From contig NZ_CP009832.1 of the NCBI RefSeq assembly GCF_000959525.1, forward strand, positions 310,001 through 374,000: DNA of 64,000 nt, written 5' to 3'. This document shows positions 13,653 to 18,232 of this stretch, in pieces. The stretch's first letter is position 1; the number at the start of each line of letters is the position of its first letter. Under the pieces are notes generated by a model. That model was given only the letters and a program-made list of their open reading frames with translations. It made no database searches and was not told the DNA's origin. A program made the position numbers and the translations under genes. This stretch comes from Burkholderia multivorans ATCC BAA-247. Its GTDB lineage: Bacteria; Pseudomonadota; Gammaproteobacteria; Burkholderiales; Burkholderiaceae.

Positions 13653-14048
13653 ATGGACAAGAGCATGAAAATCCTGGTGGTGGACGATTTCCCGACGATG
13701 CGCCGGATCGTCCGCAACCTGCTCAAGGAACTGGGCTATACGAACGTCGACGAGGCCGAGGACGGCGCGGCCGGTCTTGCGCGGCTGCGCGGCGGCGGCT
13801 TCGATTTCGTGATTTCGGACTGGAACATGCCGAACCTCGACGGCCTCGCGATGCTGAAGGAAATCCGCGCGGACGCGTCGCTCGCGCATCTGCCGGTGCT
13901 GATGGTCACCGCGGAATCGAAGAAGGAGAACATCATCGCGGCCGCGCAGGCCGGCGCGAGCGGCTACGTCGTGAAACCGTTTACGGCCGCGACGCTCGAC
14001 GAGAAGCTGAACAAGATCATCGACAAGATGGCCAAGGCCGGGAGCTGA
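13653..14048 (+). CDS. cheY: Chemotaxis response regulator CheY
   Basis: The canonical CheY (131 aa), which when phosphorylated binds FliM and reverses the motor. Residues Asp11, Asp12, phospho-acceptor Asp56 ([12 protein letters not shown]), Thr86 (LMVTAESK) and Lys108 (VVKPF) are all in place and the sequence is close to enteric CheY throughout. It is directly followed, 1 bp after its stop, by cheZ, the partner phosphatase, which supports this copy rather than the one at 5416 as the motor switch signal. ATG 13653 follows GGAAAGGAACGACG. Confidence 0.97.
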
Positions 14049-14049
14049 C

Positions 14050-14781
14050 GTGAACGAGCCGATCCATGCCGCGCCGGGCGATGCGCCGTTCGGCGGCGAC
14101 AGCCAGCCCGAAGGCGCCGATCTCGCGAGCGACCGCATCCTCGCGCGCATCGGCCAGCTCACGCGCACGCTGCGCGACTCGATGCGCGAGCTCGGGCTCG
14201 ACAAGCACGTCGAGCGCGCGGCGGAAGCGGTGCCCGATGCACGCGACCGGCTGCGCTACGTCGCGACGATGACCGAGCAGGCCGCCGAGCGCGTGCTGAA
14301 CGCGATCGAGATCGCCAAGCCGGTGCAGGAGCGCGTCCAGAACGAAGCGGAGGCACTGGACGCGCGCTGGGCGCAGTGGTATGCGGCACCGATCGAGCAT
14401 GCGGAAGTGCGCGAGCTGATGGACGACACGCGCGCGTTCCTGCGCGCGCTGCCCGACGCGACCTCGGCGACCAACGCCCAACTGCTCGAAATCATGCTCG
14501 CGCAGGACTTCCAGGATCTGACCGGCCAGGTGATCAAGAAGATCATGGACATGGTCTACCTGATCGAGCAGCAGCTGTTGACCGTGCTGGTCGAGAATAT
14601 TGCGCCGGAACGGCGCGAGCAGTTCGCGGCGACGGCCGCTGCGCTCGCGGCCGAGAAGACGAGCGCGACCGGCAGCCCCGAGTCTCTGCTGAACGGCCCG
14701 CAGATCGCGCCGGAAGGCAAGCCCGACGTCGTGCAGGACCAGGCGCAGGTGGACGACCTGCTCGCCAGCCTCGGCTTCTGA
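14050..14781 (+). CDS. cheZ: CheY phosphatase CheZ
   Basis: CheZ (243 aa) accelerates loss of phosphate from CheY-P. The family's catalytic helix is visible as [19 protein letters not shown], holding the Asp and Gln that enter the CheY active site. The C-terminal [11 protein letters not shown] is the CheY-anchoring peptide, joined by a flexible Ala/Glu-rich linker. The start is GTG 14050, 1 bp after the cheY stop, so the pair is tightly coupled. It ends the chemotaxis operon; no clear terminator follows, only a GC-rich dyad. Confidence 0.95.
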
Positions 14782-14857
14782 CGCAGCGCGCGTCGAGCGT
14801 CGCGGCCGCGCCGTCCCCCCCCCGGCGGCGGCCGCGCGTCGGCATTTCCGTGCGGAA

Positions 14858-14888
14858 TTGACACTTGGACACACTCCGCGGGCATACT
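14858..14888 (+). promoter_or_regulatory. Possible promoter of the DUF2844-DUF3443 pair
   Basis: A consensus TTGACA (14858-14863) with CATACT (14883-14888) 19 bp downstream. It lies 90 bp before the DUF2844 start and suggests the pair is transcribed separately from the chemotaxis operon. Confidence 0.45.
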
Positions 14889-14977
14889 ACGCGTCAGCAG
14901 CAACGCAGCGTCATTCATACGATCATCGCGATCGCGGGCGGCGGCGCCCGCGTCGACGCCAGTCCCTGGGGGGGAAC

Positions 14978-15481
14978 GTGAAGCTGAAACGTTTGGGTAG
15001 GGCTGCCGCGCACGCGGCAGTTGCAACGGGCGTGCTGTGGGCGACCCACGCGTACGCCGAACTGGGCGGGGCGCCGATGTCGCCGCCCGCCAACGATCCG
15101 GCGGCCACCGTGCGCGCGATGCAGCGCGCGATGCGCTCGGCCGACGGCGCGCCGACGAGCGCGGCCGCGTACACGATGCGCGAGATCACGCTCGGTTCCG
15201 GCACCGTGATCCACGAATACACCTCGAGCGCGGGCACCGTGTTCGGTCTCGCATGGCGCGGGCCGACGGTACCGGATCTCGCGTCGCTGCTCGGCAGCTA
15301 TTTCCCGCAGTACACGGCCGGCGTCGAAGCCGCGCACGCGGCACGCGGCTGGCGCGCGCCGGTGTCCGTCGCGACCAGCGGGCTCGTGATCCGCACGGGC
15401 GGCCACATGGGCGCGTTCTCGGGCCAGGCATGGCTGCCGAACGCACTGCCCGCCGGGCTGACCGGCAACGACATCCAGTGA
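14978..15481 (+). CDS. Secreted DUF2844 family protein
   Basis: A 167-residue exported protein recognised as DUF2844. It has a Sec signal peptide (basic MKLKRLGRAAAH, hydrophobic core, AYA cleavage near residue 28, mature start ELGGAPM). The mature part contains YTMREITLGSGTVIHEY, AGTVFGLAWRGPT and a C-terminal RTGGHMGAFSGQAWLP. The function is not known. Starts at a GTG 14978 behind a run of G. Placed 16 bp before the DUF3443 gene; such pairing suggests the two proteins work together in the periplasm. A role as substrate or partner of the DUF3443 protein is inference only. Confidence 0.85.
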   Translation: MKLKRLGRAAAHAAVATGVLWATHAYAELGGAPMSPPANDPAATVRAMQRAMRSADGAPTSAAAYTMREITLGSGTVIHEYTSSAGTVFGLAWRGPTVPDLASLLGSYFPQYTAGVEAAHAARGWRAPVSVATSGLVIRTGGHMGAFSGQAWLPNALPAGLTGNDIQ

Positions 15482-15497
15482 CTGCGGGAGAACGATC

Positions 15498-16793
15498 TTG
15501 CGAATTCCTCGTACTTTCATCCGCTGGGTCGGCGTCGCGGGTCTGGCGATCGCGACGGCGTTGACGGTCGTCGCGTGCGGCGGCGGCGATGGGGACGGCG
15601 GCGGTAGTGCCGCAGGCGGCGGCAGTTCGACGGGCGGCGGCAATACCGGCGGATCGGGCGGCACCGGCGGCTCCGGCTCGGGCGGCGGCACGGCCAACAC
15701 CGCGAACACGGCCGTCATCACGGTCAATTCCGGTGTCGCGAGCGTCATCAACATTCCGACGGTCAGCGTGACGGTCTGTGCGCCGGGCACCACGAATTGC
15801 CAGGTCGTCAACAACGTGCTCGTCGACACCGCGTCGTACGGCCTGCGGCTCGTCAGCACCGCGGTATCGGGCCTGCTCGGCAGCCTGCCGCAGACGACGA
15901 GCGGCGGCGCGCCGCTCGCCGAATGCGGCAAGTTCGTGTCGAGCTACACGTGGGGTTCGGTGCGCACGGTCGACCTGTCGATCGGCTCCGAACAGGCATC
16001 GTCGCTGCCGGTGCAGATCATCGGCGATCTCGGCACCACGAACGTGCCGACGTCCTGCACGAACGGCAACACGTCGGCGAACTCGGCCGGCACGCTCGGC
16101 GCAAACGGGATTCTGGGCATCGGGCCCGCACCGTACGACTGCGGCGACAACTGCGTGACGTCGACATCGTCCGACTACAACAACTACTACGCGTGCCCGA
16201 ACGGCAATGCGAGCTGTACGGTCACGCTCGTGCCGCTCGCGCAGCAGGTCGCGAATCCGGTCCATCGTTTCGCGACCGACAACAACGGCGTGATCGTGCA
16301 GATGCCGAACATCTCGAACAGCGGGCAGGCGAGCGCGACGGGCCTGCTGACGTTCGGCATCGGCACGCAGAGCAACAACGCGCTCGGCGCTTCGTCGACA
16401 CTGACGTCGACGACGGCCGGCGACGTCACCGCGACGTTCCTCGGCCGCACCGTGACGGCGTTCTTCGATACGGGCTCGAACGCGTATTTCTTCGACGACG
16501 CCTCGCAGGCGGTCTGTTCGCGCAACACGTCGTTCTACTGCCCGACGTCGACGACGACCTACTCGGCGACGCTGACCGGCCAGAACGGCACGTCGGCCGG
16601 CGTGACGATGCCGGTCGTGAACGCGGATGCGGTGTTCGCGAACACGTCGACGTTCGCGTTCAACGACATCGCCGGCCCGTTCGGCTCGTCGCAATGGCTC
16701 GATCTCGGCCTGCCGCATTTCTACGGCAAGACGATCTACTTCGGCATGGACCGCCGGTCGATGGGCGGCGCAGCGCCTTACGTCGCATTCTGA
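15498..16793 (+). CDS. DUF3443 lipoprotein, predicted pepsin-like aspartic protease
   Basis: A 431-residue predicted lipoprotein: signal peptide ending LTVVAC, then a Gly/Ser linker to about residue 70. The globular part resembles a two-lobed pepsin-like protease. VLVDTASYGLRL puts a D-T-x-S motif at Asp110; AFFDTGSNAYFF puts a second at Asp324; between them GANGILGIGP resembles the post-flap GILGLG of pepsins; and the C-terminal KTIYFGMDRR matches the typical final VFDR strand. Such residues would form one active site. The Pfam label is a domain of unknown function; protease activity is inferred from these motifs. TTG start at 15498. A strong terminator follows. Confidence 0.8.
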   Translation: MRIPRTFIRWVGVAGLAIATALTVVACGGGDGDGGGSAAGGGSSTGGGNTGGSGGTGGSGSGGGTANTANTAVITVNSGVASVINIPTVSVTVCAPGTTNCQVVNNVLVDTASYGLRLVSTAVSGLLGSLPQTTSGGAPLAECGKFVSSYTWGSVRTVDLSIGSEQASSLPVQIIGDLGTTNVPTSCTNGNTSANSAGTLGANGILGIGPAPYDCGDNCVTSTSSDYNNYYACPNGNASCTVTLVPLAQQVANPVHRFATDNNGVIVQMPNISNSGQASATGLLTFGIGTQSNNALGASSTLTSTTAGDVTATFLGRTVTAFFDTGSNAYFFDDASQAVCSRNTSFYCPTSTTTYSATLTGQNGTSAGVTMPVVNADAVFANTSTFAFNDIAGPFGSSQWLDLGLPHFYGKTIYFGMDRRSMGGAAPYVAF

Positions 16794-16814
16794 GCGGCCC
16801 GGCCGGCCGTACCG

Positions 16815-16846
16815 AAAAGGGGGGCGACTCGGTCGCCCCCTTTTTT
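16815..16846 (+). terminator. Rho-independent terminator after DUF3443 gene
   Basis: A 9-bp GC stem (GGGGGCGAC / GTCGCCCCC) with a TCG loop and TTTTTT. It closes the DUF2844-DUF3443 unit and separates it from flhB. Confidence 0.9.
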
Positions 16847-17032
16847 CATCCGCGCGCGACACGCAGGCACCCGCCGTCGAGCCGCGCCGGGCGGGCGATC
16901 GCGCCCGTCCGATTCGCAGAAATACCCCCCTTTCCCGGCTTTGCTCGACCGATCGGCGGTTGACGCGTCCATCAATAATCGCTGTCAGTGAAAAGCGGCA
17001 TTCCGCCGTAGCCGTAGCCGACTGGAGGCCCC

Positions 17033-18232
17033 GTGGCAGACGAGAGCGATCTCGACCGGACCGAAGCCGCCACTCCGAGACGCCGCGAGAAGGCGCGCGA
17101 GGAGGGGCAGGTCGCGCGTTCGCGCGAGCTGGCTTCGTTCGCGCTGCTCGCGGCGGGCTTCTACGGCGCGTGGCTGCTCGCGGGACCGGCGGGCGCGCAT
17201 CTGCAGGCGATGCTGCGCGGCGCGTTCGCGTTCGACCGCGCGACCGCATTCGACACGCACCGGATGCTGTCGGCGGCCGGCAGCGCGAGCCTCGAGGGGC
17301 TTGCCGCGCTGCTGCCGATCCTCGCACTGACCGGCGCGGCCGCGCTGCTCGCGCCGATGGCGCTCGGCGGCTGGCTGATCTCGCCGAAAACCTTCGAGCT
17401 GAAGTTCGACCGGCTCAATCCGGTCGCGGGTCTCGGCCGCATCTTCTCGATCCAGGGGCCGATCCAGCTCGGCATGTCGATCGCGAAGACGCTCGTCGTC
17501 GGCGGCATCGGCGGCGTCGCGATCTGGCGCAGCAAGGACGAACTGCTCGGGCTCGCGACGCAGCCGCTCGATACGGCGCTCGTCGACGCGCTGCATCTGG
17601 TCGCCGTGTGCTGCGGCACGACGGTGGCCGGGATGCTGGTCGTCGCCGCGCTCGACGTCCCGTATCAACTCTGGCAGTACAACAAGAAGCTGCGCATGAC
17701 GAAGGAAGAAGTGAAGCGCGAACACCGCGAGAACGAAGGCGATCCGCACGTGAAGGGGCGGATTCGCCAGCAGCAGCGCGCGATCGCGCGTCGCCGGATG
17801 ATGGCGGCCGTGCCCAAGGCGGACGTCGTCGTCACGAACCCGACGCACTTCGCGGTCGCGCTGCAGTACGCGGACGGCGAGATGCGCGCGCCGAAGGTCG
17901 TCGCGAAGGGCGTGAACCTCGTCGCCGCGCGCATCCGCGAGCTCGCGGCCGAGCACAACGTGCCGCTGCTCGAAGCGCCGCCGCTCGCGCGGGCGCTCTA
18001 TCACAACGTCGAACTCGAACGCGAGATTCCGGGCGCGCTGTATTCGGCCGTCGCCGAAGTGCTCGCGTGGGTCTATCAGCTCAAGCGCTTCCGCGCCGAA
18101 GGCGGCGCGTTCCCGGCCGCGCCCGTCGATCTCGACGTGCCGGCCGAGCTCGACAAGGGCGCGACGGTGTCCGCCGACGACGCGCGCGACGAGGCCGAAG
18201 ACGCGCTCGGCACGCACGGAGGCGCCGCATGA
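17033..18232 (+). CDS. flhB: Flagellar type III export protein FlhB
   Basis: FlhB (399 aa) is the substrate-specificity switch of the flagellar export gate. The N-terminus (ESDLDRTEAATPRRREKAREEG) and four membrane helices (to ~210) are typical. The cytoplasmic domain carries the autocleavage site Asn269-Pro-Thr-His in VVTNPTHFAVAL. A 40-residue acidic/alanine C-terminal tail is variable. Start GTG 17033 behind CTGGAGG. The stop overlaps the flhA ATG (ATGA), beginning the flhB-flhA-flhF-flhG-fliA run, expected to be FlhDC-dependent (class II). Confidence 0.97.
   Translation: MADESDLDRTEAATPRRREKAREEGQVARSRELASFALLAAGFYGAWLLAGPAGAHLQAMLRGAFAFDRATAFDTHRMLSAAGSASLEGLAALLPILALTGAAALLAPMALGGWLISPKTFELKFDRLNPVAGLGRIFSIQGPIQLGMSIAKTLVVGGIGGVAIWRSKDELLGLATQPLDTALVDALHLVAVCCGTTVAGMLVVAALDVPYQLWQYNKKLRMTKEEVKREHRENEGDPHVKGRIRQQQRAIARRRMMAAVPKADVVVTNPTHFAVALQYADGEMRAPKVVAKGVNLVAARIRELAAEHNVPLLEAPPLARALYHNVELEREIPGALYSAVAEVLAWVYQLKRFRAEGGAFPAAPVDLDVPAELDKGATVSADDARDEAEDALGTHGGAA

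What the first reader, a model, noticed from the sequence alone, without database searches (positions are those of the whole stretch)
14978..16793. DUF3443 lipoprotein has hallmarks of a bilobed pepsin-like protease, paired with DUF2844
Two D-T-x-S motifs in aromatic/hydrophobic strands (Asp110 in VLVDTASYG, Asp324 in AFFDTGSNA), a GILGIGP after the first lobe and a C-terminal YFGMDRR strand occur in the same order and at about the spacing (214 residues) seen in eukaryotic pepsins. Pepsin-like enzymes are rare in bacteria. The gene is annotated as unknown function, is a predicted lipoprotein, and is 16 bp behind an exported DUF2844 gene, which could be its inhibitor, activator or substrate. 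The pair lies inside the motility locus with its own promoter and terminator, so it may process envelope or flagellar proteins.
Basis: partly seen in the sequence, partly recalled or inferred. Interest (0 to 1): 0.8.

Follow-up and report, generated by a model that had tools for sequence, protein, structure and literature searches.

The report
Lipid-anchored pepsin-like bacterial protein pair
A widespread bacterial protein of unknown function looks like a distant two-lobed relative of the stomach enzyme pepsin, tethered outside the cell and nearly always made with one small partner, but the copy found here carries an active-site change that may have weakened or abolished cutting.

Summary
The DUF2844-DUF3443 pair is real. 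DUF3443 is best explained as a distant, bilobed, pepsin-like (clan AA) lipoprotein. In a 134-row alignment both motif aspartates are kept (D110 in 133 of 133 readable rows, D324 in 134 of 134), as are the glycines of the two expected psi-loop motifs (134 of 134 each), in pepsin order and spacing. Pepsin profiles score DUF3443 proteins above decoys, and two members align over most of their length with both Asp paired. Of 133 copies, 132 show a lipobox; DUF2844 lies upstream in 130 and nearby in the other 3, though two plasmid copies lack it. The cheZ-flhB position marks one orthologous clade, so a motility role is not shown. New caveat: the window has DTAS, not DTGS, a change almost confined to that clade and found in 64 of 65 of its copies in the window's genus. 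A Gly-to-Ala change there is reported to inactivate mammalian PAG-1, so this copy may bind rather than cut.

The parts
14978..15481 (+). DUF2844 gene: small exported protein, predicted partner of DUF3443 (GTG start)
   Evidence: Pfam PF11005 E 6.6e-44; signal-peptide-like start ending AYA followed by ELGG, read by eye, as in relatives; directly upstream of DUF3443 in 130 of 133 loci and 75 of 75 genus copies
15498..16793 (+). DUF3443 gene: predicted bilobed pepsin-like lipoprotein (TTG start, 431 aa)
   Evidence: Pfam PF11925 E 4e-131; profile tests against pepsins
15576..15578 (+). lipobox Cys27 (VVAC-GGG), predicted lipid anchor
   Evidence: sequence; lipobox-type Cys in 132 of 133 relatives, 129 by pattern and 3 by eye; L005 is the exception
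15579..15695 (+). Gly/Ser/Asn-rich tether between the lipid anchor and the pepsin-like domain
   Evidence: sequence; the Pfam domain starts at residue 67
15825..15836 (+). first active-site-type motif D110-T-A-S; Ala112 replaces the usual Gly
   Evidence: D110 in 133 of 133 readable rows; Gly at 112 in 112 of 134; DTAS in 64 of 65 genus copies with cheZ or flhB beside them
15933..15944 (+). candidate flap segment F146-V-S-S149 (F-x-x-G in most relatives), set by eye against pepsin Tyr75-x-x-Gly78
   Evidence: F146 130 of 134, Gly149 128 of 134; the assignment is inferred
16110..16118 (+). I205-L206-G207, hydrophobic-hydrophobic-Gly of the first lobe's psi-loop (pepsin ILG122)
   Evidence: G207 134 of 134; aligned with pepsin GILG by profile in L006, L049 and L103
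16467..16478 (+). second active-site-type motif D324-T-G-S
   Evidence: D324 134 of 134, G326 134 of 134
16704..16715 (+). L403-G404-L405-P406, proposed psi-loop Gly of the second lobe (pepsin ILG302)
   Evidence: G404 134 of 134, P406 134 of 134; aligned with pepsin ILGD in L049
16814..16846 (+). rho-independent terminator hairpin behind the pair, usable from both strands
   Evidence: -25 kcal/mol, z -4.9; listed by the scan on the - strand only, the + strand T run read by eye
14050..14781 (+). cheZ, upstream neighbour (context, not part of the module)
   Evidence: Pfam CheZ E 2e-76
17033..18232 (+). flhB, downstream neighbour (context, not part of the module)
   Evidence: Pfam Bac_export_2 E 1.1e-126

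Best explanation
DUF3443 is a secreted, lipid-anchored, two-lobed relative of pepsin, and DUF2844 is its small exported partner; the two form a self-contained two-gene module. Shown at sequence level: lipoprotein signal, two D-[TS]-G-[ST]-type motifs with invariant Asp, a Gly motif behind each in pepsin order, conserved cysteines, near-constant pairing. Inferred: the two lobes close around a cleft where D110 and D324 share a water, as in aspartic peptidases; most of the family (DTGS/DSGS) cuts peptides outside the inner membrane; DUF2844 occupies or controls that cleft as ligand (inhibitor, pro-segment-like partner or substrate). In the cheZ-flhB lineage that holds the window, Gly112 became Ala, which probably lowered or abolished cutting while the cleft and the partnership were kept, so here the protein most likely acts as a weak protease or a peptide-binding pseudo-pepsin.
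For: D110 133 of 133 readable rows, D324, G207, G404 each 134 of 134. Spacing D110-G207 97 and D324-G404 80, against 90 and 87 in pepsin (recalled numbering). Profile of 3 fungal and 6 bacterial pepsins: 46 of 134 DUF3443 proteins score 5 bits or more, against 0 of 178 unrelated proteins, 0 of 134 shuffled, 0 of 134 reversed; fungal-only profile 27 of 134 against 0, 0 and 1. Unconstrained alignments over most of L006 and L049 pair both Asp; L049 also pairs both Gly motifs. Each lobe scores z 5.8-8.4 against pepsin lobes and 3.9 against the other lobe (40 shuffles). Three of four weak PDB hits of the DUF3443 profile are rhizopuspepsins. Lipobox 132 of 133. DUF2844 upstream in 130 of 133 and nearby in the other 3; directly upstream in 75 of 75 genus copies. 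DTAS; PAG-1 precedent.
Against: No single DUF3443 protein of 27 hits PF00026 in Pfam at E 10 (window); best PDB E 0.35, pairing lobe 2 with rhizopuspepsin lobe 1; hhalign probabilities are at most 15.2 percent, and the highest of 100 column shuffles (23.1) edged past the fungal-only score (23.0). Much of the signal is the DTGS tetrads: with them masked 4 of 134 reach 5 bits, against 1 of 134 shuffled and 1 of 134 reversed, and the top score of all (10.0) is a reversed sequence. The window protein itself scores weakly: 5.2 bits, to the other lobe. The second Gly motif is D-L-G or D-W-G, not two hydrophobics. The flap Tyr position is mostly Phe. No fold, activity or partner binding was tested. 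All 36 non-Gly rows of the tree set keep both Asp, which argues against a long-dead enzyme. The two PAG-1 passages are secondary and not fully consistent: PMC3335542 names an Ala-for-Gly change yet prints the first motif as VVFDTGSS. Two plasmid copies lack DUF2844.
Confidence: 0.7

Rival explanations
1. The window protein is a fully active aspartic peptidase; Ala112 is tolerated.
For: In the 64 DTAS genus copies with cheZ or flhB beside them D110, T111, A112, S113, D324, G326 and S327 are invariant; DUF2844 is kept too. The PAG-1 precedent rests on secondary, not fully consistent passages.
Against: A Gly-to-Ala change at this place is given as the reason for inactivity of PAG-1 (passages); Glu and Met also occur at 112 in the same clade, which suggests lost constraint; pN/pS in the genus is 0.51 against 0.17-0.19 for cheZ and flhB.
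Confidence: 0.28
2. DUF3443 is a non-enzymatic binding protein family with a pepsin fold (like PAGs or plant xylanase inhibitors, the latter recalled) throughout; DUF2844 is its ligand.
For: Lipoprotein with one nearly constant partner; DUF2844 is kept in DTAS and DTGS copies alike.
Against: Away from the cheZ-flhB loci the Gly is almost always kept: 53 of 53 genome-search loci (two of them, L010 and L035, inside that clade on the tree) and 12 of 13 readable other find_related loci, as expected of an enzyme.
Confidence: 0.2
3. DUF3443 is unrelated to pepsin; the two D-T/S-G-S motifs and Gly motifs are convergent.
For: No significant single hit, low hhalign probability, signal mostly in the tetrads.
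Against: Four motifs in order and spacing with invariant key residues; collinear alignments; lobe-by-lobe scores above all 40 shuffles in each of five comparisons.
Confidence: 0.1
4. The pair is part of the flagellar or chemotaxis machinery.
For: 66 of 80 find_related loci have cheZ or flhB beside it; one further family has it next to cheB (L188).
Against: Those loci lie in one clade; 20 diverse 15-kb regions share no recurring partner other than DUF2844.
Confidence: 0.1

Closest known systems
Pepsin family A1 (PF00026; fungal and animal pepsins)
   Same: Two D-[TS]-G-[ST] motifs, a Gly motif behind each, similar spacing, secretion, cysteines
   Different: No PF00026 hit; lipid anchor with Gly-rich tether; nine conserved cysteines; second Gly motif D-L/W-G; nearly constant partner gene; DTAS in this lineage
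Shewasins and other bacterial pepsin homologues (PMC2761423 abstract and results section read; PMC4814920 passages read)
   Same: Bacterial, two-motif pattern; Leu-Pro after the second psi-loop Gly (GLP in L141, L145, L146), as in DUF3443
   Different: They are described as lacking signal peptides, and shewasin D as mainly cytoplasmic; DUF3443 looks exported, cysteine-rich and lipid-anchored
RloA secreted retropepsins of Pseudomonas aeruginosa (PMC12239564 passages read)
   Same: Exported bacterial clan AA proteins with a disulfide
   Different: RloA is a single-lobe dimer with Ala after DTG; DUF3443 has two motif sets in one chain
Pregnancy-associated glycoprotein 1 (PMC3335542, PMC4890903 passages read)
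   Same: Reported Gly-to-Ala change at the active site with both Asp kept
   Different: Mammalian A1 member; kinship with DUF3443 is distant; the passages are secondary

Membership tests
Pepsin family A1 / PF00026 | Match to the family's Pfam model | tested here: not met
   0 of 27 members hit PF00026 at E 10; window protein hits only PF11925
Pepsin family A1 / PF00026 | Two catalytic motifs D-[TS]-G-[ST] in one chain | tested here: inconclusive
   Family: met, D110 133 of 133 readable, D324 134 of 134, Gly at 112 in 112 of 134. Window: second motif met, first is DTAS
Pepsin family A1 / PF00026 | Hydrophobic-hydrophobic-Gly behind each motif | tested here: inconclusive
   First: ILG, G207 134 of 134. 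Second: G404 134 of 134 but preceded by D (122 of 134) and mostly W/L/F
Pepsin family A1 / PF00026 | Flap tyrosine (Tyr75) | tested here: inconclusive
   Best candidate position is F146 (F 130, Y 3, L 1 of 134); alignment by eye
Clan AA (acid-protease fold) | Profile similarity above null | tested here: met
   (fungal plus bacterial); but the fungal-only score was just exceeded by the highest shuffle and the masked test is weak
Clan AA (acid-protease fold) | Three-dimensional acid-protease fold, two Asp in one cleft | not testable with these tools
   Structure prediction switched off
Clan AA (acid-protease fold) | Pepstatin-sensitive proteolysis | not testable with these tools
   needs purified protein
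Retropepsin family A2 (single-lobe) | One motif per chain, active as dimer | tested here: not met
   Two motif sets in one chain; one of 27 members hits PF13650 at E 0.012, chance level
DUF3443 (PF11925) and DUF2844 (PF11005) | Match over the Pfam cut-off | tested here: met
   437.8 and 149.4 bits against 25 and 22.4

The most novel reading that the evidence does not exclude
DUF2844-DUF3443 is an unrecognised, widespread class of exported, membrane-tethered bacterial pepsins with a dedicated partner protein, in which one lineage, settled between cheZ and flhB and present in all 65 sampled genomes of the window's genus (apparently Burkholderia), has turned into a pseudo-pepsin by the kind of Gly-to-Ala change reported to have silenced mammalian PAG-1.
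Probability: 0.4. Interest if true: 0.78.

Novelty: new variant of a known kind. Interest (0 to 1): 0.6.

Why it matters
Published accounts describe bacterial pepsins as rare, cytoplasmic and without signal peptides (PMC2761423, PMC4814920). DUF3443 would add an exported, lipid-anchored, cysteine-rich class found in 67 of 150 genomes sampled from the window's family and 65 of 65 from its genus, with a built-in partner gene. That makes testable how bacteria use pepsin-type clefts outside the cell, whether DUF2844 is an inhibitor or substrate, and whether pepsins decay into binding proteins in bacteria as reported for mammals.

Tried and rejected
Tried without gain: single-sequence PDB search (the three alignments shown fall on the Gly-rich linker region); NCBIfam (0 hits); literature for DUF3443, DUF2844, PF11925 and three locus tags guessed from memory (0 papers each); two wider searches for exported or Burkholderia pepsins (4 and 6 papers, listings only, none whose title or abstract start names this family); PDB and Pfam for DUF2844 (chance-level hits only, best PDB E 0.0082 to a designed repeat protein); phage records (0); a shared neighbour beyond DUF2844 (none in more than 3 of 20 regions). 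pN/pS as a test of relaxed constraint after Gly112-to-Ala is inconclusive: window's genus DTAS 0.51, Caballeronia DTAS 0.33, Caballeronia DTGS 0.22, Paraburkholderia DTGS 0.31. Rejected: a general motility role; simple filing in family A1 (Pfam test not met).

Rows dropped and corrections: L001 (window copy), L002 (DUF2844 locus), L009, L056, L058, L060 (below cut-off) and L059 (partial) were left out of the 134-row alignment and the 133-locus counts. The first alignment mixed strands and was discarded. 75 of the 76 genus places were read (the fragment G433:C2 was not fetched). In one search one row (L227) was mis-read by the script and is corrected. Some 'no cheZ/flhB' labels there rest on 1.5-kb flanks. 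L140 is unreadable at 112 but was labelled Gly by the script. The lipobox count (123 of 133 by a loose pattern) was redone more strictly; L005, which has a longer N-terminal part, then failed, so the count is 132 of 133. The tree is a FastTree with several long branches; MWU p-values treat related sequences as independent and are not used.

Full report
What is there. DUF2844 (14978-15481, +) and DUF3443 (15498-16793, +) lie 16 bp apart between cheZ and flhB. DUF3443 starts with a lipobox (VVAC, C27), a Gly-rich tether and a 365-residue domain that matches PF11925 with 437.8 bits. A 33-nt hairpin of -25 kcal/mol with a U run follows. No sigma-70-like promoter was found in 14000-17500.

Distribution. 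PF11925 is found in 8 of 299 genomes drawn from the phylum (7 over the cut-off), 20 of 200 from the order (19 over), 67 of 150 from the family and 65 of 65 from the genus, with up to 7 matches per genome. The window's own genome has one copy each of DUF3443 and DUF2844. For comparison the pepsin model PF00026 matched 7 of 398 genomes of the phylum, 6 over its cut-off. Phage records gave none; 5 plasmid records carry it, 4 of them annotated only as DUF3443 and one without annotation there. The genus is taken to be Burkholderia from these and other named relatives; the window itself is unnamed.

Is it pepsin-like? In 134 aligned domains D110 is present in all 133 readable rows; D324, G207 and G404 in all 134. 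The order D-T-G-S, GILG, D-S/T-G-S, (L/W)-G matches pepsin D32, ILG122, D215, ILG302 (pepsin numbers partly recalled; the motif description is in PMC2761423, results section). Distances are 97 and 80 residues against 90 and 87. hhalign of the whole family against three fungal pepsins scored 23.0 and against fungal plus bacterial pepsins 26.6; 100 column shuffles gave means of 14.5 and 14.1 and maxima of 23.1 and 24.7, so the highest shuffle edged past the first. A hidden Markov model of the nine pepsins gave 46 of 134 DUF3443 proteins 5 bits or more, against 0 of 178 unrelated proteins from the 20 context regions, 0 of 134 shuffled and 0 of 134 reversed; the fungal-only model gave 27 of 134 against 0, 0 and 1. 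With the catalytic tetrads masked the advantage becomes small (median 0.3 bits against -1.6 to -2.4; 4 of 134 at 5 bits or more, against 1 of 134 shuffled and 1 of 134 reversed, the latter with the top score of 10.0). L006 (profile 8-286) and L049 (profile 40-334 of 351) align over most of their length with both Asp and the first Gly motif paired; L049 also pairs the last Gly motif. The window protein itself reaches only 5.2 bits, its second lobe against the pepsin first lobe. Lobe by lobe the scores exceed all 40 shuffles in each of five comparisons. In the reverse direction the DUF3443 model ranks rhizopuspepsin and endothiapepsin first and second of 195 scored, and the other seven pepsins at ranks 4 to 25 among decoys. 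The direct Pfam test is negative and the fold could not be predicted. I therefore call it a distant clan AA relative, not a member of A1.

Export. Of 133 relatives 132 have a lipobox-type Cys ahead of the domain, 129 by pattern (at least four Gly or Ser in the next 12 residues) and three by eye; L005, with a longer N-terminal part, does not show one near the domain. Seven cysteines are kept in 132 to 134 of 134 rows (C94, C101, C143, C233, C240, C340, C348) and two more, C215 and C219, in 125. Known bacterial pepsins are described as lacking signal peptides (PMC2761423, abstract) and shewasin D as mainly cytoplasmic (PMC4814920, passages).

The partner. DUF2844 is directly upstream in 130 of 133 loci, 1.07 kb upstream of the domain in L005 and just downstream in L052 and L054. 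In the same 150-genome sample 66 genomes carry DUF2844 and 67 DUF3443; only G382, whose copy covers just model positions 139-367, lacks DUF2844 (lists compared by eye). In the genus it is directly upstream in 75 of 75 copies read. Two plasmid copies (L217, L218) lack it within 4 kb and sit behind a TAXI-family TRAP solute-binding gene. DUF2844 has no recognisable relative in Pfam or PDB. That it is a ligand of the cleft is inference.

Context. Twenty diverse 15-kb regions share no family besides the two DUFs in more than 3 regions (blastp; neighbours from 15 of these 20 regions were scanned with Pfam). cheZ or flhB flanks 66 of 80 find_related loci and these fall inside one clade of 86 rows with SH support 97. 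The position between cheZ and flhB therefore reflects the ancestry of that clade, not a property of the family.

The active-site change. Position 112 (pepsin Gly34) is Gly in 112 of 134 rows; Ala 16, Glu 3, Met 1, Ser 1, unreadable 1. Among find_related loci with cheZ or flhB nearby 19 of 66 are not Gly; of the other 14, 12 are Gly, 1 Ser, 1 unreadable; all 53 genome-search loci are Gly, their context not sorted. In the genus, 64 of 65 copies with cheZ or flhB beside them, the window included, are DTAS and one (L225) DTGS; of 10 copies elsewhere 3 are DTAS, 5 DTGS, 1 DSGS and 1 DTGS after correction (L227). On the tree at least 6 changes are needed. PAG-1 of cattle and buffalo is described as inactive because Ala for Gly displaces the catalytic water, with the cleft and pepstatin binding retained (PMC3335542 and PMC4890903, passages); these passages are secondary, and PMC3335542 at the same time prints the first motif as VVFDTGSS, so the precedent needs the primary papers. 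Both Asp are kept in every non-Gly row seen. In the genus DUF3443 shows pN/pS 0.51 against 0.29 for DUF2844, 0.17 for cheZ, 0.19 for flhB and 0.08 for cheY (13 or 14 loci): it changes fast but keeps its motifs. Whether Ala112 abolishes cutting is open.

What is in print. Searches of the held library for DUF3443, DUF2844 and PF11925 returned 0 papers; the Rawlings and Bateman survey does not contain the words Burkholderia, DUF or lipoprotein. Most subscription papers are not held, so absence is limited to this library.

Noticed in passing
L217 3974-5050; L218 3980-5050; L179 4762-6225: Two plasmid DUF3443 genes without DUF2844 lie directly behind a TAXI-family TRAP solute-binding gene, and L179 has an NMT1_3-type gene just upstream of the pair: possibly an alternative partner.
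   Followed up: no
L188 5650-8903: In a different family of the order the pair lies convergent with a cheB gene, although this DUF3443 (L053 in the tree) is outside the 86-row cheZ-flhB clade.
   Followed up: no
L184 5567-7222; L185 5413-7062: A calpain-like (Peptidase_C2) gene lies directly downstream of the pair in two genomes of one genus group.
   Followed up: no
L216 (Burkholderia glumae BGR1 plasmid pBGF2): A 23-kb plasmid carries a che gene block, the DUF2844-DUF3443 pair, a VOC gene, flhB and flhA.
   Followed up: no
16716-16718: His407 in the window protein, where 131 of 134 relatives have Phe.
   Followed up: no
L082, L087: DUF2844 hits at two places in each of these loci, and closely spaced DUF3443 matches in several genomes, point to tandem copies of the pair.
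   Followed up: partly
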